Below are positions 374 through 11,023 of a stretch of 11,023 bases of DNA, piece after piece. The stretch's first letter is position 1, and each line of letters begins with the position of its first letter. The DNA is from Prevotellaceae bacterium (GTDB taxonomy: Bacteria > Bacteroidota > Bacteroidia > Bacteroidales > UBA932): contig JAIRXY010000145.1 in NCBI GenBank assembly GCA_031268055.1, positions 1 to 11,023 of the forward strand, read 5' to 3'. Both the position numbers and the translations under genes were made by a program. The notes below the pieces were generated by a model that saw only the letters and a list, made by a program, of their open reading frames with translations, was not told the DNA's origin and did no database searches.

Positions 374-2938
374 ATGCTACCCAAATATCAAAAATCTGAA
401 AAACCAAGATATATGAGGTATTTTGTTGCTGCTGCGGCAGTAGCGTGCTGCAGCGCGAGCCTTTTTGCGCAGCAGGTAAATACGCTCTATTTTATGAATA
501 ATGTGCCCGAAAGGAACGCCTACAACCCGGCCTTTCAGCCGGTACATAACGTTTACATTGACCTTCCGGTGCTACCCAACTTCCGCTTCGACGTGGGTAA
601 TAGCTCGCTGGGCTTCAGTGACGTTATTTTTAGCCAAAGGATTAACGGCGTAGACAGCACCATTACTTTCTTACACCCGGAGGCATTGGGGAAGAAGGAC
701 GACTTCTACAAGTCGCTGAGCAATACCACCCGAATCTACGGAGATATGACTTTCAACCTGATAGGCTTTGGCTTTCGGGTAAAGAAAAATTACTTTAGCG
801 TGGATGTATCCCAAAAAGTATCGGCAGGCGCATACCTGCCCAAAGATCTTTTTAAGCTGGCGCTGTATGGCGCCGGTAAAGGGTCGGGCTACTCCGATGT
901 TTTTGATTTGAGCAGGCTGGGCATTCAGGCATCGGTTTACACTGAATTTGGCCTGGGCTACTCGCGCAAAATCAACGATAAGCTTACAGTGGGCGGTAAG
1001 CTAAAGTACCTCATCGGTCAGGCAAACATCAATACGGACATTAATGATTTTAAGCTGACGGCAAGCGCCGACAAGTGGGCAATATCGGGCTCGGGGACGC
1101 TAAATGCCTCCCTTCCGTTAGTTGATATTCCCTTTGGCGCCGACGGTGTTATTGACCTTGCAAATTTAAAGCCGGAGGTGAATACCGAATCGCTCAACAG
1201 CGTCAAGGCAGCTACCGATTTGATTTTTTCCTCCAACAACGGCTTTGGCGTGGATTTGGGCGCTACTTACAACATCCTGCCAAAGCTGCAGCTCTCGGCA
1301 GCGCTTACCGACCTTGGCTTTATCCGCTGGCGAAGCAACCTGACCAACGCCAACCTGAATGCAAATTTTTCCACAGAAGGGATTGCATATGAGCCGGGCG
1401 ATAATATTGATAACAAGCTGGATACGCTGCTGCAAAGCTTGGAGGATGCGTTTGTGAGCGGCGGTACGCACAATGGCTACACCACCTCGCTTTCTACCCG
1501 CCTGAACGTGGGCGCGGAGTACAGCGTTGTAAACAATAAAATAGGATTTGGGTTACTCTCATCTACCCTTTACACCAACAAAAGCCTTTATACCGACCTC
1601 ACGGTTGCCGCCAACCTGCGCCCCTGCACATGGTTCAGCACTTCGTTTACCTACTCGCTGCTCAATGGACGGCTGAGCGCCGTAGGATTTGGCGCTCAGC
1701 TGAAGGTAATGCCCTTCAACATGTACCTTGCCATTGACCGTATTCCGCTGGCGTTTGCCTCCTCAAAAATGCCGATACCAACCAACCTGACAGGCTTTAA
1801 CCTGCAAGCGGGCATGGTGTGGACAATAGGCAACCCGAAGAAAACAGGCGACGACGACGGCGACGGCGTAAAGAACAGCAAGGACAAATGTCCCAACACG
1901 CCGCGAGGCTACATGGTGGATAAGCACGGATGCATGCTGGACAGCGATGGCGACGGAATACCGGATAACTTGGACAAGTGCCCGGCCTCGGCTTTTGGCG
2001 CTGCTGTTGATGACGATGGCTGCCCGCTGGACAGCGACGGAGATAAGGTGCCCAACACCGAAGACGAGTGCCCTAACACGCCGGCAGACGTAGCGGTAGA
2101 TTCTACGGGATGTCCGCTTGATACCGACGGCGACAAGATACCCGATTACCTCGACAAATGCTCCAATACGCCGGCGGGCGTGGCGGTAGATTCTTCCGGT
2201 TGCCCGCTTGATGCCGACGGAGACGGCGTTTCTGACGATTTGGATAAATGCCCCAATACGCCTGCCAACATTCAGGTTGACGCCTACGGTTGTCCGCGCG
2301 ATTCGGACGGCGATGGCGTGCCCGATTATCGCGACGCGTGCCCCAACACGCCGCTTGATGCACCGATAGATTCTCTCGGATGCTTGCTTGACTCTGATGG
2401 AGATGGCGTATTCGACTACCTCGACAGCTGCGCCGGAACTCCAGCAGCCGCTATGGGTAAGGTAGATGCAAAAGGATGCCCCACCGATACCGACGGTGAC
2501 GGAATTGCCGACTACGAAGATAACTGTCCGACGATTGTAGGAGTTGTAGGCAACTATGGCTGTCCGGAGATAGAGGCAGCGGCAAAGCAAATTTTTGAAA
2601 AGGCGCTCACCGGTATTCAGTTTAGTCTGGGTGGTGAAAGCATTCTGCCGACTTCTTACGAAATACTCAACCAAATTGCCGAGGTAATGTCGGAAAATTC
2701 CGACTACATACTTATCGTTAACGGCCACACAGATAGCATTGGAAGCGCCGACGACAACCTGCTGCTATCCGAAAAGCGCGCCAACGTGGTGAAAACGTAC
2801 CTCAAGGAGAAGGGCATTCAGGAGGACAGGGTAATCACAAAAGGTTTTGGCGACGCTAAGCCGATAGCAAGCAACGATACGGAAGAAGGGCGAGCCAAAA
2901 ATCGCAGGGTAGAGTTTATTGTGAAGTTTGAGCAGTAG
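374..2938 (+). CDS. DUF5723 / TSP3-repeat / OmpA-family outer-membrane protein
   Basis: This 854-residue protein has four parts. A signal peptide ends near SLFAQQ. Residues about 33-480 resemble DUF5723, a Bacteroidetes beta-rich domain predicted to form an outer-membrane barrel ([19 protein letters not shown], then FLHPEA and [12 protein letters not shown]). Residues 493-731 hold eight Asp-rich TSP3 calcium-binding repeats. Residues about 735-854 are an OmpA C-terminal domain with [15 protein letters not shown] and NRRVEF; the Asp of HTDS and the second Arg of NRRVEF are the family's usual diaminopimelate contacts. The expected role is a barrel in the outer membrane tied to peptidoglycan through the OmpA domain, with the repeats as a rigid calcium-stabilised spacer; this is inferred from the families. 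Start: ATG at 374 places 13 extra residues before a conventional signal peptide, so ATG at 413 ([13 protein letters not shown]) is a strong alternative. The 3' end overlaps the convergent pdxT by 23 bp. Confidence 0.93.
1850..2567 (+). repeat. Eight tandem TSP3-type repeats, 90-bp period
   Basis: Within the OmpA-family gene, the codons for DxDGDGhxDxxDxCPNTP-like units begin at 1850, 1940, 2030, 2120, 2210, 2300, 2390 and 2486. The period is exactly 90 bp (30 residues) except for the last step of 96 bp, where the linker gains two residues (around PAAAMGKVD). Most units carry DxDGD plus a conserved Cys in the CPNTP segment, and most linkers carry a second Cys (usually GCP), as expected for calcium-binding thrombospondin type 3 repeats with disulphides. 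The DNA copies have diverged at synonymous sites, so the array does not look freshly amplified. Confidence 0.93.
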
Positions 2939-3500
2939 CAATAATACGCAAAAAATACTCGTGAACGCGGGTATCGCTTGTAAGCTCAGGATGAAAAGCG
3001 GCGGCAAGGAGGTTGCCTTGCTGCGCAAAGAGTATCTTATCCTCAAGGCTAAGCAGCGTCGTAACGTCACCTCCGGCCTTTTCGATGTAGGGAGCGCGGA
3101 TAAAAACGGTATGGAAAGGAGCGTCTCCCAGCGCAGGTATCGGCATGTCTGCTTCAAAGCTGGCCAGCTGACGGCCAAAGGCGTTTCGCTCCACGTGCGC
3201 GTCCATCAACCCTAAGCGGGGCTGGGCGCTGCCGTTGATGTACTTGGATAGAAGTATCAGCCCGGTACACGTTCCAAAAATCGGCAGCCCCGCGCGCCCA
3301 GCCTCGGCTATGGGTTCCAGCAACCCATAGCGCACCAAGAGCTTACCCACGGTGGTGCTTTCTCCACCCGGAAGTATCAGGCCGCTTATCCCGTGCAAAT
3401 CATGAGGGTTAAGCACGTCAACTGTTTCTACCCCCAAGCAGCGTAGCAGGTTGCGGTGCTCCCGTACCGCTCCCTGCAAGGCTAAAATTCCAATCTTCAT
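2916..3500 (-). CDS. pdxT: Pyridoxal 5'-phosphate synthase glutaminase subunit PdxT
   Basis: PdxT hydrolyses glutamine and passes ammonia to PdxS for PLP synthesis in the cytoplasm. It is a class I glutamine amidotransferase-like enzyme. From ATG at 3500 the protein has 194 residues, close to the family's usual length, and starts [10 protein letters not shown] as PdxT proteins do. Visible motifs are LPGGEST (residues 43-49), the nucleophile Cys78 in FGTCTGL, and the His170/Glu172 pair in FHPEL that completes the triad. The usual Ala after the nucleophilic Cys is Thr here, a conservative change. A GTG at 3512 would add four residues and overlap pdxS, but the ATG gives the canonical N-terminus. 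The gene follows pdxS by 5 bases and is surely in its operon. Its 3' end overlaps the convergent OmpA-family gene by 23 bases, so there is no room for an intergenic terminator. Confidence 0.97.
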
Positions 3501-3505
3501 GCTCT

Positions 3506-4402
3506 TTACCACCCGCGGTCGGCAATTTTATCTTTATCTTCCATCTGGGCTACGCTTTGGCCTCGCATAGCCTCGCCTAAACCCTTGGACACCTCGGCCA
3601 CCAGCTTGAAATCTTGGTAGTGCGCAACAGCCTCTACGATAGCTTTTGCGCGCTTAGCCGGGTTGTCCGATTTGAAGATGCCCGAGCCAACAAATACGCC
3701 GTCGCACCCCAACACCATCATCAGGGCGGCGTCGGCAGGCGTGGCGATGCCGCCGGCGGCGAAGTTTACCACCGGTAGCCGTCCCAGCTCTTTTACCTGC
3801 AGCGCCAGCTCGTAGGGAGCGCCCATCTCCTTGGCAATGGTCATCAGCTCCATTGGCGACGCGCTTACAACGCGCTGTATATCCTTGCTCACCTGGCGTA
3901 TGTGGCGGACAGCTTCAACCACGTCGCCGGTGCCGGCTTCGCCCTTGGTGCGTATCATTGCCGCCCCTTCACCCACGCGGCGGAGCGCCTCGCCCAAGTT
4001 GCGAGCGCCGCAAACGAACGGGACTTTAAACTCCGACTTCAGGATGTGGTATACGTCGTCGGCGGGCGTTAGCACCTCGCTTTCGTCTATGAAATCTATC
4101 TCCAGCGCCTCCAGCACGCGCGCCTCCACGATGTGCCCAATGCGCGCCTTTGCCATCACAGGGATGGAAACGGCCTGCTGAATCCCGATAATCATTTCGG
4201 GGTCGGACATGCGCGCCACGCCGCCTTGCGCCCGAATATCCGAAGGTACGCGCTCCAGCGCCATTACTGCAACTGCGCCCGCATCCTCCGCTATTTTTGC
4301 CTGCTCTGGGGTAACAACATCCATAATAACCCCGCCCTTGAGCATCTCTGCGAGGCCTTTCTTAACGGCAAATGTTCCTGTTTCTTTTTTTACTTCCGGC
4401 AT
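3506..4402 (-). CDS. pdxS: Pyridoxal 5'-phosphate synthase lyase subunit PdxS
   Basis: PdxS condenses ribose 5-phosphate, glyceraldehyde 3-phosphate and ammonia from PdxT into PLP. It is a (beta/alpha)8 barrel that forms a dodecamer decorated by PdxT. The 298-residue product is full length. Catalytic residues known from the Bacillus enzyme are all present with an offset of +4: Asp28 in VIMDVV, Lys85 in MAKARIGH (the first covalent lysine) and Lys153 in RTKGEAGTG (the second). The phosphate-binding segments FAAGGIATP and VFVGSGIF are also intact. ATG at 4402 begins [11 protein letters not shown], a natural N-terminus for this family. The upstream region contains a strong Bacteroidetes-type promoter and a hairpin in the predicted leader. 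The organism probably makes B6 by this route; whether it also has PdxA/PdxJ cannot be judged here. Confidence 0.98.
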
Positions 4403-4901: not shown

Positions 4902-5168
4902 TTAAAGATTATACATCTTGTAAGCCTGCCCGCGCACGACCACCTTACGCAAGGAAACAGTATTATCTTTGTACAGCAGCAGTATTCGGTAGTTTCCACG
5001 CCGTATGCGATAGCCGTTTTTCACGCCGCTTAACGGTTTACAGCCAACAATACCGGCAAGTTTATTTGCGGCATTGATATTGTCAATTAGGATTTTTAGC
5101 ATGGCAGAGGCTGCTTCCGGAACAGCGGCAACGTCCTTGAAAAAATTTCTATGGTATATGATTTTCAT
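4902..5168 (-). CDS. RelE/ParE-family toxin
   Basis: The 88-residue protein has the size and pattern of RelE/ParE superfamily toxins. It starts MKIIYHRNFFKDVAAVP, followed by a helical segment (MLKILIDNINAANKL). It then has the characteristic strands LSGVKNGYRIRRGNYRILL and TVSLRKVVVRGQAYKMY, in which a basic, aromatic core precedes the last strand. Members either cleave mRNA at the ribosome or poison gyrase; which applies cannot be told from sequence alone. The preceding frame on the same strand ends one base before this ATG, the usual antitoxin-toxin arrangement, but only its last 28 codons are open. The gene may therefore be an orphan whose toxicity is lost or controlled from elsewhere. 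Downstream it abuts the remnant of a glycosidase gene. The toxin frame itself looks intact. Confidence 0.8.
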   Translation of the reverse strand: MKIIYHRNFFKDVAAVPEAASAMLKILIDNINAANKLAGIVGCKPLSGVKNGYRIRRGNYRILLLYKDNTVSLRKVVVRGQAYKMYNL

Positions 5169-5677: not shown

Positions 5678-7606
5678 ATGAAATTCTTAATTTTAATTTC
5701 AGCATTAATTTGTTTTACTTCCTGTACAGGTAAGGAGAGCGAACGCCCCGATTATCCTATTCGGCAGGTAACGCTGGATAGGGTAGAATTGACCGACCAT
5801 TTTTGGCTACCGAGAATCCAGACAGTACAGGAAAAAACTATCCGCTATGCGTTCGATAAATGCACCGCCGAAGGACGCTTGGAAAATTTCGTAGCTGCGG
5901 GAAACGTTATCCGCGGCGGCACGGGAAAAGTCCGCGGCGTGATGCCTTTCGACGACACCGACGTGTATAAAGCCATCGAAGGAGCAGCATATTCGCTCAT
6001 CAATGCTCCTAATCCCTCCTTGGATACTTACCTTGATTCTATCATTGAGCTTATTGATTATGGGCAGGAAGCAGATGGCTACTTGACCACGTGGCGCACC
6101 ATCAACCCGCAAAATCCGCCTGCCTCGTGGGTAAAATCCGGTGGCGGACGCTGGTTTGATTTAGGCGCGAGCCATGAGCTGTACAACAGCGGTCACTTGT
6201 TCGAAGCGGCTTCGGCGCACTACTTGGCTACCGGCAAGCGCAATTTTCTGAACATAGCGCTCAAAAACGCCGACTTGCTGGTAAAAGTGTTTGGCGATAC
6301 CGCAAGCTACGAGGCGCCCGGACATCAAATTGCAGAAACAGGGCTGGTAAAGCTGTATCGTATTACCGGAAAAACAGCTTACCTGCAGCTGGCAAAAAAA
6401 TTTCTTGACCAGCGCGGCGATAAGCGCCACCGGCAAATCCGTGGAGCGTATACCCAAGACCATTTGCCTGTAACCCAACAGGATGAGGCCGTAGGACATG
6501 CAGTGCGGGCAACGTATATGTACGCCGGCATGACCGATATTGCCGCTTTATATGGCGACAGCCTTTACTCCAAAGCTGTACATAAGCTTTGGGATAACAT
6601 GGTTGGCAAAAAAATGTACATCACCGGTGGCTTGGGGGCGCGGCACGCAGGCGAATCGTTCGGCGACAGCTACGAGCTGCCTAATCTAACTGCTTACAGC
6701 GAGACTTGCGCCGCCATCGGAGGAGTGTACTGGGCAGAACGAATGTTTCGGCTTACGGGCAAAGCAGGCTACTTCGATATTCTTGAACGAATGCTGTACA
6801 ACGGCGTGATTGCCGGAATATCGCTCAGCGGCACGGAATTTTTCTATCCTAACCCCTTGGAATCCGATGGCAAATATGCATTCAATCACGGCGCTTCGTG
6901 TACACGGGCAGCGTGGTTTGACTGCTCATGCTGCCCAACCAACTTGATTCGCTTTATTCCGTATATTCCGAGCTTGATTTATGCTACACAAAAGGATACG
7001 GTATATGTCAACTTGTTTATGTCGAACAAATCGGAAATTCTTGTCGGAGGCAAAACGGTTTGGATTGAGCAGCAGACGGAATACCCTTGGAGCGGGAAAG
7101 TCGTGCTGCGCGTAAAAGCAAGTAAGCCGCTTACGTTCACGCTGAAAATCCGCATCCCGTCGTGGGCGCAGAGCAGAACGGCTTCGTGCGGATTGTATGC
7201 ATATACGAACAACGCGGAAAATCAACCCTCGCCAGCGCCAAACACAGCCGACGGCTACTATACCCTTACGCGCCGCTGTACATCAGCAGGCGATAGCCTT
7301 GTGCTGAGCTTCCCGATGCAGGCGCGAACGGTCGAAGCCAACGCCAACGTGAAAGATAATGCGGGAAAATATGCCGTAGAATACGGGCCGCTGGTGTACT
7401 GCATGGAGGAGGTGGATAATCCGCAAGCATTTGACAGGCACGGTAAGCCAACGTCGTTTTCGGTAGGATGGAATCCTGATTTGCTTGGCGGCATAAGCGT
7501 CATTCGCGAGCAAACCGATGCAGGTGAAAATATACTCATCCCGTACTACGCGTGGTCAAACCGCGGCGTCGGAAAAATGAACGTATGGAGGTATACAGGA
7601 AAATGA
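5678..7606 (+). CDS. GH127 glycoside hydrolase, probable beta-L-arabinofuranosidase lipoprotein
   Basis: The 642-residue protein belongs to GH127, typified by Bifidobacterium HypBA1, which releases beta-L-arabinofuranose by a retaining mechanism with a zinc-bound cysteine nucleophile. Key residues are Glu342 and Cys344 in YSETCAAIGG, and Cys418 and Cys419 in FDCSCCPTN. They match HypBA1 Glu338, Cys340, Cys417 (nucleophile) and Cys418. The (alpha/alpha)6 barrel spans about 35-430, followed by beta-sandwich domains ending LIPYYAWSNRGVGKMNVW, a typical GH127 end. The N-terminus MKFLILISALICFTSC carries a lipobox-like FTSC with Cys16, so it is probably a periplasmic or surface lipoprotein. ATG at 5678 gives this signal directly. 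It is the first gene of the hydrolase cluster, and the GH27 gene starts inside its stop codon. GH127 also contains an aceric acid hydrolase active on rhamnogalacturonan II, so the exact substrate is open. Confidence 0.93.
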   Translation: MKFLILISALICFTSCTGKESERPDYPIRQVTLDRVELTDHFWLPRIQTVQEKTIRYAFDKCTAEGRLENFVAAGNVIRGGTGKVRGVMPFDDTDVYKAIEGAAYSLINAPNPSLDTYLDSIIELIDYGQEADGYLTTWRTINPQNPPASWVKSGGGRWFDLGASHELYNSGHLFEAASAHYLATGKRNFLNIALKNADLLVKVFGDTASYEAPGHQIAETGLVKLYRITGKTAYLQLAKKFLDQRGDKRHRQIRGAYTQDHLPVTQQDEAVGHAVRATYMYAGMTDIAALYGDSLYSKAVHKLWDNMVGKKMYITGGLGARHAGESFGDSYELPNLTAYSETCAAIGGVYWAERMFRLTGKAGYFDILERMLYNGVIAGISLSGTEFFYPNPLESDGKYAFNHGASCTRAAWFDCSCCPTNLIRFIPYIPSLIYATQKDTVYVNLFMSNKSEILVGGKTVWIEQQTEYPWSGKVVLRVKASKPLTFTLKIRIPSWAQSRTASCGLYAYTNNAENQPSPAPNTADGYYTLTRRCTSAGDSLVLSFPMQARTVEANANVKDNAGKYAVEYGPLVYCMEEVDNPQAFDRHGKPTSFSVGWNPDLLGGISVIREQTDAGENILIPYYAWSNRGVGKMNVWRYTGK

Positions 7607-8973
7607 TGAAACGTGGTATGAAAAAAATCGTATGTAATACAGGCGTCGCTGCCATCGCGGCATTTCTTCTCGCCAGCGTCTCCCACGCCGCTCACGGGCA
7701 AGCGGACTTTACGCGCTGGTCGCCAACGCCCCCTATGGGCTGGAATAGCTGGGATTGCTACGGCCCTACGGTGAGGGAGCACGAGGTGAAAGCCAACGCC
7801 GACTACATGGCCGAACACCTGAAGCAATACGGGTGGGAGTACATCGTAGTGGACATTCGCTGGTTTGTTGAGAATGACAAGCCCGGCGGCTACAACCAGA
7901 CCAACCCTCGCTACGTGATGGACGAGTACGGGCGCTACACTCCCGCTGTCAACCGCTTTCCCTCTGCCGCCAATGGTAAGGGATTCAGGCCGCTCGCCGA
8001 CTACATTCATGCCAAAGGGCTGAAGTTCGGTATCCACATCATGCGCGGTATTCCGCGGGAGGCTGTTACCCGTAAGCTACCCGTGAAGGGCACGCGCTTT
8101 ACCGCCAACCAGCTCTACTCCTCCGAGCTGCTCTGCACGTGGCTCGCCGACAACTACACCGTAGCTGACGTTTCCGGCGGACAAGAGTACTACGACTCCC
8201 TCATCGAGCTGTACGCCTCGTGGGGTGTTGATTTTTTGAAGGTCGACGATATCTCTCGTCCCTACCACACCCGTGAAATTGAAATGATTCGCAAGGCCAT
8301 TGACAAGAGCGGAAGGCACATTGTCCTGAGCCTTTCGCCCGGCGCAACGCCTGTCACTGCGGCTGAACACGTTAGCGCACATGCGAACATGTGGCGCATG
8401 GTGGACGACCTCTGGGATGTTTGGGCAGATGTAGTCAGCTTGATGCGCGTGGCGCGCGGCTGGTTTCCAAGCGTTAGCCCCACATGGCCGGACTGCGATA
8501 TGATACCGCTGGGGCGGCTTGCCATCCGCGGCGAGCGCGGGGAGGATCGCCCCAGCCGCCTCTCCCCCAACGAGCAGCGCGTGCTGATGACTTTTTTCTC
8601 CATCTTTCGCTCTCCGCTGATGTTTGGCGGAGATCTTCCCAGCCTCGACGAATTTACGCTATCGCTGCTCACCAACAATGCGGTTCTGGAGATGCACCGC
8701 GAGGGGCGCGAGCCGCGCCTAATCTTCTGGCAGAACGAAAAGGTAGCTATCGCTGCGCGCCGCGACCACTCAAGCGAGCGCTATGTTGCCCTGTTCAACC
8801 TCTCGGACGAGGAGGCGACAGCCTCTGTACGCCTATCTGATATCGGTATTGACGGCGACGGCGAATATCTCGACATGTGGACAGGCGAGCTAAAAGGGCG
8901 AGCGCAGGAAGCTATCTCCGCACAGCTACCCCCACATGCTGCCGTGCTATACTCTGTGAAACCCTTAAAATAA
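7603..8973 (+). CDS. GH27 glycoside hydrolase, alpha-galactosidase or beta-L-arabinopyranosidase
   Basis: A 456-residue GH27 (clan GH-D) enzyme with a signal peptide ending near HAAHGQ. The (beta/alpha)8 barrel opens with PPMGWNSWDCYG. The nucleophile is Asp215 in FLKVDDIS, and the acid/base is Asp299 in TWPDCDM (family form WNDPDM). A short C-terminal beta domain ends AVLYSVKPLK. The residue pair that contacts galactose O4/O6, Asp-Asp in alpha-galactosidases (IDDCW), reads Asp84-Ile85 in VVDIRW. As I recall, Geobacillus beta-L-arabinopyranosidase also has Ile there. Start: ATG at 7603 overlaps the GH127 stop as ATGA; ATGs at 7606 and 7618 are also possible and would equally give a signal peptide. 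A GTG at 7552 adds an unlikely basic extension. The gene looks G+C richer than its neighbours (47 of 60 bases at 8521-8580), a hint of separate origin. Tight overlap implies translation coupled to GH127. Confidence 0.9.
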   Translation: MMKRGMKKIVCNTGVAAIAAFLLASVSHAAHGQADFTRWSPTPPMGWNSWDCYGPTVREHEVKANADYMAEHLKQYGWEYIVVDIRWFVENDKPGGYNQTNPRYVMDEYGRYTPAVNRFPSAANGKGFRPLADYIHAKGLKFGIHIMRGIPREAVTRKLPVKGTRFTANQLYSSELLCTWLADNYTVADVSGGQEYYDSLIELYASWGVDFLKVDDISRPYHTREIEMIRKAIDKSGRHIVLSLSPGATPVTAAEHVSAHANMWRMVDDLWDVWADVVSLMRVARGWFPSVSPTWPDCDMIPLGRLAIRGERGEDRPSRLSPNEQRVLMTFFSIFRSPLMFGGDLPSLDEFTLSLLTNNAVLEMHREGREPRLIFWQNEKVAIAARRDHSSERYVALFNLSDEEATASVRLSDIGIDGDGEYLDMWTGELKGRAQEAISAQLPPHAAVLYSVKPLK

Positions 8974-8995
8974 CCATAACCCTTAACAACATAAC

Positions 8996-10159
8996 ATGCA
9001 ACGTCATTACTACCATTTCATTCCTCTGCTATTGCTACTTCCCGGCTTGCCGGCGGTTGCGCAGGACGACGCAAGGCTGCCGTCCGACGTGATTGCCATC
9101 ATTGAGAAAGTCAACGATCAATGGCAGCGTACACACCCCGATCATGGTAACGCTTTTTGGCATACGGCTGCTTATCATACCGGAAACATGGAAGCCTATT
9201 TTGCAACAGGAAAGGAAAAATACCGAAGCTACTCCGAAGCATGGGCGGAAAAAAACGAATGGAAAGGCGCTCCGTCGAGCGATAAATCTCAATGGAAGTA
9301 TACCTACGGCGAGACCGACGATTTTGTGCTCTTTGGCGATTGGCAGATTTGCTTCCAAACCTACGCAGACTTGTACATGCAGCAACCAAACGAACAAAAA
9401 ATTGCCCGCGCACGGGAAGTCATGGAGTACCAAATGTCCACCCCCAACAACGATTACTGGTGGTGGGCTGACGGGCTTTACATGGTGATGCCGGTGATGA
9501 CCAAGCTGCATAAAGCAACAGGAAGCGACTTGTACCTGCAAAAGTTGCATGAATATTTTTCGTATGCAAAGAATTTGATGTACGATTCCGAATCGGGATT
9601 ATTTTATCGGGACGCCAAGTATATTTACCCCAAGCATAAAACCAAGCAGGGCTCAAAGGATTTTTGGGCGCGCGGTAACGGCTGGGTATTTGCTGCGCTG
9701 GCAAAAGTATTGAGCGATTTGCCCCAGAACGATGCCCATAGAGCAGAATACATTCAAGTTTTTCAATTCATGGCAAAGGCGCTGAAAAATGCCCAACAAC
9801 CTGAAGGATACTGGACGCGAAGTATTTTGGAGGCCACTCAAGCCCCCGGATACGAAACCAGCGGCACAGCCTTTTTTACTTACGGTTTTCTATGGGGAAT
9901 CAATCATGGTTTGCTGGAGAGAAGCGAGTATGAAACTGTTACGGAAAAAGCTTGGGCTTACCTGACAAAGATAGCCTTGCAGCCGGATGGACAAATAGGC
10001 TACATTCAACCCATTGGCGAAAGAGCCGATCAACACACGGTAAGCGCCGCAACTACGGCTGATTTTGGGGTTGGCGCATTTTTATTAGCCGCTTCGGAAA
10101 TGCTTCGCTTTATGAAAGAATCGCAAGCACAGGCGAACATAAAGGCAAGCGGTCGCTGA
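8996..10159 (+). CDS. GH105 unsaturated uronyl hydrolase
   Basis: GH105 enzymes hydrate the 4,5-unsaturated galacturonyl or glucuronyl residue that polysaccharide lyases leave at the non-reducing end, releasing it from rhamnogalacturonan or related oligosaccharides. The 387-residue protein has the usual family length plus a signal peptide (MQRHYYHFIPLLLLLPG, cut near AVAQ), so it acts in the periplasm. Its (alpha/alpha)6 barrel shows the family motifs YWWWADGLYMVMPVM, with Asp159 as the likely general acid/base, then FWARGNGWVFAAL near residue 222 and ETSGTAFFTYGFLWGI near 288. ATG at 8996 is 22 bases after the GH27 stop, with an A-rich leader and no Shine-Dalgarno, so it is probably in the same transcript. 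Bases 9642-9789 of this gene recur inverted at the right end of the window. The gene itself appears intact. Confidence 0.9.
   Translation: MQRHYYHFIPLLLLLPGLPAVAQDDARLPSDVIAIIEKVNDQWQRTHPDHGNAFWHTAAYHTGNMEAYFATGKEKYRSYSEAWAEKNEWKGAPSSDKSQWKYTYGETDDFVLFGDWQICFQTYADLYMQQPNEQKIARAREVMEYQMSTPNNDYWWWADGLYMVMPVMTKLHKATGSDLYLQKLHEYFSYAKNLMYDSESGLFYRDAKYIYPKHKTKQGSKDFWARGNGWVFAALAKVLSDLPQNDAHRAEYIQVFQFMAKALKNAQQPEGYWTRSILEATQAPGYETSGTAFFTYGFLWGINHGLLERSEYETVTEKAWAYLTKIALQPDGQIGYIQPIGERADQHTVSAATTADFGVGAFLLAASEMLRFMKESQAQANIKASGR
9642..9789 (+). repeat. Left arm of a 148-bp inverted repeat, inside the GH105 gene
   Basis: These bases are the reverse complement of 10876-11023 with a single difference (T at 9760, against C at 10905, which would pair with G). 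This arm lies in frame within the GH105 gene, around the FWARGNGW motif, so it is the original copy. Confidence 0.95.
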
Positions 10160-10290
10160 AATGGCACAACCAATTGGATTTGAGCGTTTTTGACGATTGC
10201 TCGAATGTGAGCAGCCAGCAAGCGGAGGCCAACCGTACACATTAGCGTGCATAAGGCGGCGAAGAAAATTATTAACATTTTTCAAAGGAA

Positions 10291-10902
10291 ATGAATACAA
10301 TTAAGCTCCTATTTACAAGCCTATTATCCATTAGCTCGATGCTGGGTTGGGCGCAGGCAACGCTGCCCGAAAGAGAGTTTTCTGCTTATCTTTTTGCCTA
10401 TTTCGAAGGCTCAAGTACGCGGGACAAGCAGGAGCAGCTGCGCTTTGCCGTCAGCGCAGATGCTGTAAAGTGGTCGGCTTTGAATGGAAATAATCCGGTG
10501 GTAGCCTCCGATAAGATTTCACAAACCGGCGGCATTAGAGACCCGCACATGCTGCGTGGCGAGAAAGGTGAATTTCTGCTTGTAGCTACCGATATGTTTA
10601 CCGTGAAGAATGGTTGGGACAGCAACCCCGGCATTGTTATGCTGCGCTCCGATGACTTGATAAATTGGCAACATTCCATTATTGACTTGGCAAAGCGTTA
10701 CCCGAAAAAATTCGGAAATGTGAAGTGGGTGTGGGCTCCCCAAGTGCTTTACGATTCCAAAGCCCAAAAATATCTCGTTTACTTCACAATTCGATTTCAC
10801 AACGATACAAAGCTTGATTTTTATGCAGCGTACGCCAACAAGGATTTTACAGGATTCGAAAATGAGCCACGCCTGTTTTTCAGCGCCTTTGCCATGAATT
10901 GA
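10291..10902 (+). CDS. GH43 glycoside hydrolase, N-terminal part only (interrupted by an inverted copy)
   Basis: The N-terminus is a signal peptide (MNTIKLLFTSLLSISSML, cut near GWAQA) followed by the first blades of a GH43 five-bladed propeller. YLFAYFEGSS, LRFAVSADAVKW and GGIRDPHML carry the Asp expected to act in catalysis, and VKWVWAPQVLYD is also characteristic. GH43 members are inverting alpha-L-arabinofuranosidases, beta-xylosidases, arabinanases or beta-1,3-galactosidases; the subfamily cannot be fixed here. Only residues 1 to about 195 are genuine. From 10876 the sequence becomes an inverted copy of GH105 DNA, and the last residues (AFAMN) and the stop come from that copy. The catalytic Glu region is therefore missing and the 203-residue product would be inactive. 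The true gene probably continues beyond the point of joining. A 131-base gap with no gene and no clear promoter separates it from GH105. Confidence 0.8.
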   Translation: MNTIKLLFTSLLSISSMLGWAQATLPEREFSAYLFAYFEGSSTRDKQEQLRFAVSADAVKWSALNGNNPVVASDKISQTGGIRDPHMLRGEKGEFLLVATDMFTVKNGWDSNPGIVMLRSDDLINWQHSIIDLAKRYPKKFGNVKWVWAPQVLYDSKAQKYLVYFTIRFHNDTKLDFYAAYANKDFTGFENEPRLFFSAFAMN

Positions 10903-11023
10903 AACACTTGAATGTATTCTGCTCTATGGGCATCGTTCTGGGGCAAATCGCTCAATACTTTTGCCAGCGCAGCAAATACCCAGCCGTTACCGCGCGCCCA
11001 AAAATCCTTTGAGCCCTGCTTGG
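10876..11023 (-). repeat. Right arm of the inverted repeat, replacing the rest of GH43
   Basis: This arm carries GH105 internal coding sequence in the opposite direction and runs to the window edge. The transition out of GH43 falls within or next to TTTTTCAGC, a stretch that may be common to both sequences, so the join looks like short microhomology. No transposase, terminal repeat or target duplication is visible at the join. Confidence 0.95.

What the first reader, a model, noticed from the sequence alone, without database searches (positions are those of the whole stretch)
10860..11023. GH43 gene is joined to an inverted, near-identical piece of the upstream GH105 gene
Bases 10876-11023 are the reverse complement of 9642-9789 with one mismatch over 148 bases. 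The arms are separated by 1.09 kb, and the GH43 frame is broken at a short T-rich junction. Two paralogous genes would not enter GH43 at an arbitrary point in the middle of its propeller. Nearby inverted joins at microhomology are a hallmark of multiple displacement amplification chimeras in single-cell or low-input genomes. A genuine inverted duplication or a palindromic recombination product is the biological alternative.
Basis: partly seen in the sequence, partly recalled or inferred. Interest (0 to 1): 0.7.

Follow-up and report, generated by a model that had tools for sequence, protein, structure and literature searches.

The report
Assembly fold-back at a contig end
The inverted copy of a sugar-cutting-enzyme gene at the end of this sequence is most likely a false join made while preparing or assembling the metagenome, because the sequence stops just where an assembler using 119-letter words could no longer tell the copy from the original.

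Summary
Bases 10876-11023 are the reverse complement of 9642-9789 with 1 mismatch in 148, 1086 nt apart, and the join cuts a GH43 frame. The window is the whole contig C228 of a 313-contig, 74.5%-complete genome, so the contig really ends at 11023. The only mismatch lies at 10905. The terminal 119 bases begin on it, and the last 118 equal the native arm. In this genome three contig pairs overlap end to end, two by exactly 119 bases and one by 98. Loci of two same-genus genomes are identical to termite-gut metagenome records named k119_. So the contig ends where 119-mers stop being distinguishable from the native gene: an assembly-graph end on a chimeric fold-back join, probably at an 8-12 nt inverted match. 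MDA is unlikely: a related study describes whole-gut DNA and KAPA HyperPlus libraries without MDA. The rest of GH43 was not found in the bin. Among 114 other distinct usable contigs, no comparable fold-back was seen. A real inversion or inverted duplication in a minor strain is not excluded (about 12%). Verdict: artefact, low interest.

The parts
9642..9789 (+). native arm, inside the GH105-type (Pfam Glyco_hydro_88) gene 8996-10159
Evidence: Pfam PF07470 E 1.6e-85; colinear with relative L034 through this stretch.
10876..11023 (-). inverted copy of 9642-9789, 1 mismatch at 10905, runs to the contig end
10876..10887 (+). junction zone TTTTTCAGCGCC; 10879-10886 (8 nt) up to 10876-10887 (12 nt) is probably shared by native GH43 and the reverse complement of GH105 (inferred inverted microhomology)
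   Evidence: homologues carry F 114/119, S 68/119, A 64/119 at residues 197-199, but F at 196 in only 1/119
10905..11023 (.). terminal 119-mer; its first base is the mismatch; the final 118 nt equal the native copy exactly
10291..10878 (+). 5' part of a GH43-type gene, cut by the join
   Evidence: Pfam PF04616 E 1.8e-06, 27.9 bits, below the curated cut-off of 32.2 for this fragment; PF00251 Glyco_hydro_32N 26.8 bits, above its cut-off of 22.1. Three best order-level relatives 59-67% identical; up to 73% in a protein search
9790..10875 (+). 1086-nt spacer between the arms (rest of GH105 gene, decayed remnant, start of GH43)

Best explanation
This is a chimeric fold-back join at the end of a short-read metagenome contig. 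In a library or PCR molecule, a 3' end of the GH43 coding strand paired with the GH105 coding strand 1.1 kb upstream through a short inverted match (about 8-12 nt, TTCAGCGC to TTTTTCAGCGCC) and was extended there, copying GH105 backwards (inferred). The assembler, with a final word length of 119, followed the chimeric reads because the native GH43 continuation was missing or weaker, and could follow them only while the one mismatch kept the 119-mers distinct from the native gene. That is why the contig ends 119 bases after the mismatch (position shown; word length supported by other contig ends and by relatives' record names; pruning of a weak link is inferred). It has no biological function.
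For: The window is the complete contig C228 and the copy runs to its last base. The terminal 118-mer recurs in the native arm, the terminal 119-mer does not. Among 73 usable contigs of this genome, end-to-end overlaps of 40-300 nt were three: 119 (L219/L233), 119 (L221/L241) and 98 (L143/L215). A whole G009 contig and a 4134-base G010 stretch are identical to titled records Roe453_bin105 k119_3147130 and Gx485_bin89 k119_1255102. The join enters GH43 mid-domain; 101 of 119 homologues continue at least 60 residues from there. F197, S198 and A199 across the join are the commonest family residues (114, 68, 64 of 119), which points to shared bases at the join. Such matches are plentiful by chance: 22 inverted 8-mer positions (nested ones counted) and one 11-mer between the two genes. 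The contig runs unbroken through the native arm, which suggests that the copy path was the weaker one (inference). Literature: library chimeras joining a strand to the inverted complement of nearby sequence, with a search criterion of 8 bp or more; KAPA HyperPlus is said to have more artefacts than two other kits (PMC10908179, passages).
Against: Reads and coverage are not available, so the strength of the join is unknown. The overlap here is 118, not the 119 of two other pairs; my reading, that the linking edge was pruned, rests on recalled assembler behaviour and one 98-nt analogue (99 minus 1). No end-to-end overlaps were found in the G010, G009 and titled samples (20, 16 and 7 contigs). 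F196 at the join is rare in homologues (1 of 119), so breakpoint and microhomology length are uncertain. The mismatch is synonymous, which also fits a copy drawn from a real strain variant. A 1.09 kb span is long for one short-insert molecule. In PMC10908179 inverted-repeat chimeras came mainly from sonicated libraries, while enzymatic ones gave palindrome chimeras, so the KAPA parallel is loose. The window's own sample is unnamed. Fold-backs are not a general problem here (1 of 73 usable contigs).
Confidence: 0.8

Rival explanations
1. A real rearrangement carried by a minor strain: either an inversion of 9790-10875 (the observed join is exactly one of its two junctions) or a fold-back inverted duplication by template switching during replication.
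For: The join geometry equals the left junction of a 1086-bp inversion (sequence). The mismatch is a synonymous third-position change, as between strains; GTG is used at this codon in 2 of 11 relatives examined. Probable short inverted matches lie at the boundaries. DNA inversions are reported in gut bacteria including Bacteroides (abstracts in the listing).
Against: The reciprocal junction was not found: the only matches to 9600-11023 in the 74.5%-complete bin are on C228 itself. Both genes would be broken mid-domain. The contig end is explained by a word length of 119 without a strain. None of the 119 listed homologues contains FAMN. I did not search for a recombinase.
Confidence: 0.12
2. 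MDA chimera in a single-cell or low-input genome.
For: Inverted joins with an intervening deletion are the main MDA chimera class: 406 of 475, of which 337 span under 10 kb (PMC1855051, passages and table). The geometry fits.
Against: Loci of two same-genus genomes are identical to bulk metagenome-bin records, and a related study describes whole-gut DNA and KAPA HyperPlus libraries without MDA. No other fold-back in 72 further usable contigs of this genome.
Confidence: 0.05
3. Two paralogous GH105 genes in opposite orientation, one following GH43.
For: Other GH105-like genes exist in this genome (C111, C311) and in relatives.
Against: The copy is 147/148 identical while the two other matches in this genome are 23 and 25% identical in protein. 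It begins inside the GH105 frame with no intergenic DNA, and inside GH43.
Confidence: 0.01

Closest known systems
Library-preparation chimeras (PDSM model, PMC10908179)
   Same: One part of the molecule is the original strand, the other the inverted complement of nearby sequence, joined at a short inverted match.
   Different: Described for human hybridization-capture libraries. Inverted-repeat chimeras there came mainly from sonication, palindrome chimeras from enzymatic fragmentation. The span here is 1.09 kb; the authors only speculate on more distant pairs (passages).
MDA inverted chimeras (PMC1855051, passages)
   Same: Inverted orientation, intervening segment, priming at a short complementary sequence.
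   Different: No sign that this kind of sample was MDA-amplified; fold-backs are not recurrent in the contigs sampled.
Invertons of gut Bacteroidales (listing only)
   Same: The join equals one junction of an inversion between short inverted matches.
   Different: Breaks two enzyme genes mid-domain; reciprocal state not seen; probable inverted match only 8-12 nt.

Membership tests
Chimeric fold-back join (library or PCR artefact) | near-identical inverted copy of nearby sequence | tested here: met
   147/148, 1086 nt apart
Chimeric fold-back join (library or PCR artefact) | breakpoint arbitrary with respect to genes | tested here: met
   mid GH105 frame and mid GH43 domain
Chimeric fold-back join (library or PCR artefact) | short inverted microhomology at the junction | tested here: inconclusive
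   native GH43 bases past the join are not available; homologues support F-S-A (114, 68, 64 of 119) but F196 is rare (1 of 119)
Chimeric fold-back join (library or PCR artefact) | few, non-independent reads across the join | not testable with these tools
   no reads held
Assembly-graph contig end at word length 119 | end position set by the last distinguishable 119-mer | tested here: met
   terminal 119-mer begins at the only mismatch; the 118-mer recurs, the 119-mer does not
Assembly-graph contig end at word length 119 | other ends in the genome overlap by the same length | tested here: inconclusive
   119, 119 and 98 among 73 usable contigs; none in the G010, G009 and titled samples; the window's own overlap is 118
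MDA chimera | sample amplified by phi29 polymerase | tested here: inconclusive
   own sample unnamed; related study names KAPA HyperPlus and no MDA terms
Inverton | both orientations or both junctions present | tested here: not met
   only one junction in the bin; the bin is 74.5% complete
Inverton | invertase gene nearby | not tested
   not searched for; none among the eight window proteins given to Pfam

The most novel reading that the evidence does not exclude
A minor strain in the gut community carries a real 1.09-kb inversion, or a fold-back inverted duplication, that joins GH105 and GH43 at an 8-12 nt inverted match and switches off two carbohydrate-enzyme genes at once.
Probability: 0.1. 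Interest if true: 0.35.

Novelty: not a real feature. Interest (0 to 1): 0.06.

Why it matters
It shows how a false inverted duplication can sit at a metagenome contig end and look biological. It also gives a simple check that needs no reads: measure the distance from the first mismatch in the copy to the contig end and compare it with the assembler's word length. The truncated GH43 protein (ending SAFAMN) should not be taken as a natural protein.

Tried and rejected
Paralogue reading: rejected on identity and entry points.

Continuation of GH43 elsewhere in the bin: looked for with L006, with a 138-residue C-terminal piece of L176 and with L174. Besides the window itself there was one weak match, C216 (E 0.09 with L006, E 0.04 with L174), over a part of the protein before the join; the C-terminal piece gave none. 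That piece was found in the three control genomes given with G000 (G131 is the piece's own source, G097 80% and G204 61% identical), so the query works. The bin is incomplete, so the absence is weak. Of the same-genus genomes, none holds a close GH43 (best 49% identical), and the best non-self hit in the protein database was 70-73% identical, so no same-species intact copy was available.

Systematic fold-backs: contig samples were scanned for inverted pairs of 60 bp or more at 90% or more: 73 usable of G000 with the window, 20 of G010, 16 of G009, and 7 titled contigs, one of which (L036) is the same as a G009 one (L258), so 114 distinct others. Six contigs were held only to 20,000 bases, so one end of each was not seen. 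Two other terminal pairs passed the threshold (G009 L254, 63 bp, 93.7%; G010 L163, 95 bp, 95.8%). Their sequence is repetitive and palindromic and recurs in other contigs (L254's arm in L259 and L249, L163's arm in L172), whereas the window arm recurs nowhere else in the 73, so I count them as repeat families. Inverted pairs below the threshold exist, including a 1.8-kb internal pair at 86% in G010 L158 and short palindromes. Dropped before counting as wholly N: 8 of 80 fetched G000 contigs and 4 of 20 from G009.

Columns 200-203 of the alignment are misplaced by the aligner (the query's FAMN was slid to a distant C-terminal motif) and were not used.

Papers: the deposit of the k119 assemblies was not found in the searches. 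PMC9137090 used SPAdes with words up to 71, so the deposited bins come from another assembly. Read as passages: PMC11707648, PMC9137090 (19, 62, plus outline 20), PMC10908179, PMC10281810, PMC1855051. Searches were seen as listings.

Full report
Observation. Bases 10876-11023 are the reverse complement of 9642-9789 over 148 nt with one mismatch; the arms are 1086 nt apart. The match ends sharply at 10875/10876 on the GH43 side. The frame 10291-10902 ends ...EPRLFFSAFAMN-stop.

Where the window lies. The window is contig C228 in full, 11023 bases, of a genome of 2.07 Mb in 313 contigs, 74.5% complete. The inverted copy therefore runs to the real contig end. In that genome the search with 9600-11023 matched only C228 itself.

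The end position fits the assembler. The one mismatch is at 10905 in the copy. Counting from it, the contig ends after exactly 119 bases: the terminal 118-mer is present in the native arm, the terminal 119-mer is not. Among 73 usable contigs of this genome (window included; 8 of 80 fetched contigs were wholly masked and dropped), three pairs overlap end to end, by 119, 119 and 98 bases; the smaller samples of G010, G009 and titled contigs gave no such pair. A whole contig of G009 and a 4134-base stretch of G010, both same-genus, are identical to public records 'Prevotellaceae bacterium isolate Roe453_bin105 k119_3147130' and 'Gx485_bin89 k119_1255102'. That k119_ is MEGAHIT's naming for its word length is recalled, not from a call. 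If the end fell at random within the 148 copied bases, the chance of its falling at just this place is about 1 in 148 (my arithmetic). The window's overlap is 118, one less than the two 119 cases. I read this as a pruned weak link, which would also explain why C228 runs unbroken through the native arm; that is inference from recalled assembler behaviour.

The join. GH43 homologues continue past the join: 101 of the 119 listed non-self homologues have at least 60 residues from the join column on (284 proteins were found, 120 listed). At residues 197-199 the query reads F, S, A, the commonest residues of the family there (114, 68, 64 of 119), so native GH43 probably shares TTCAGCGC with the reverse complement of GH105. 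Residue 196 (F) is found in only 1 of 119, so the shared stretch may be 8 to 12 nt, or the breakpoint may lie at 10875/10876; this cannot be settled without the native DNA. Inverted 8-mers between the two genes are plentiful (22 positions, nested ones counted; one 11-mer), so such a match needs no special cause. The mismatch is a synonymous third-position change, GTT to GTG; it could be a PCR error or a strain variant.

Where is the rest of GH43? Three homologue queries found no C-terminal half in the bin, while the C-terminal query was found in the three control genomes. The bin is incomplete, so absence is weak evidence; it fits a contig that was extended by chimeric reads where the native path was missing.

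Cause. A related study of termite guts describes DNA from whole guts of five workers, KAPA HyperPlus libraries and Illumina reads; 'mda', 'multiple displacement', 'whole genome amplification' and 'phi29' do not occur in its text, and its 3 uses of 'amplif' concern 16S PCR and a reference title (PMC9137090, passages). One Gx485 genome is given as coming from Glyptotermes (PMC11707648, passage). That study's own assembly used SPAdes with words up to 71, so the deposited k119 bins come from another assembly of presumably the same samples (inference). PMC10908179 (passages) describes library chimeras that join a strand to the inverted complement of nearby sequence: mainly at inverted repeats after sonication, at palindromes after enzymatic fragmentation. 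Its finder uses a total inverted-repeat length of 8 bp or more, and its authors speculate that more distant complementary regions also join. The parallel with an enzymatic KAPA library is therefore loose, and ordinary PCR template switching is as good a candidate. MDA inverted chimeras (PMC1855051, passages) have the same geometry, but the provenance speaks against MDA, as does the lack of another fold-back in 114 further distinct usable contigs. Two other terminal inverted pairs in that set are repeats that recur in other contigs.

Biological alternative. The observed join is exactly one of the two junctions of a 1086-bp inversion, so an inversion or inverted duplication in a minor strain remains possible. 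Against it: no reciprocal junction found, two enzymes broken mid-domain, no homologue with the join among those listed, and an end position already explained. I give about 0.12 to all real-rearrangement readings.

Conclusion. The best account is a library or PCR chimera that ends where the assembly graph could no longer tell copy from original. Interest is low.

Noticed in passing
window 10132-10236: In five same-genus genomes the best GH105 match (73-86% identical) lies in a long open frame (664-1136 aa); in L034 it is GH105-GH43-DUF2264 in one 1128-aa protein. In the window the gene stops at 387 aa, and apparent remnants of the missing part follow: a 24-nt piece matching L034 residues 413-420 and an overlapping 93-nt piece matching residues 713-743, in another frame. 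This looks like stepwise deletion and gene shortening.
   Followed up: partly
window 5678-10878: Run of carbohydrate enzymes on one strand: GH127, an alpha-galactosidase-type Melibiase_2 gene, a Glyco_hydro_88 (GH105-type) gene and a GH43 start. SusC/SusD genes were not searched for.
   Followed up: partly
window 374-2938: 854-aa protein with DUF5723, thrombospondin type 3 repeats and a C-terminal OmpA domain; 38-nt DNA repeats spaced 90 or 180 nt at 1916-2403 lie in the same gene and probably encode the type 3 repeats.
   Followed up: partly
window 2916-4402: PdxT/PdxS-type pair (SNO and SOR_SNZ families), overlapping by a few bases on the minus strand.
   Followed up: no
window 4902-5168: 88-aa minus-strand frame that looks RelE-like by eye (recalled); no Pfam match at 0.001.
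   Followed up: partly
L254 6599-7114; L163 1-320 and 9100-9778: Sibling genomes carry palindromic repeats at contig ends that recur in other contigs (L259, L249; L172) and can mimic terminal inverted repeats.
   Followed up: partly
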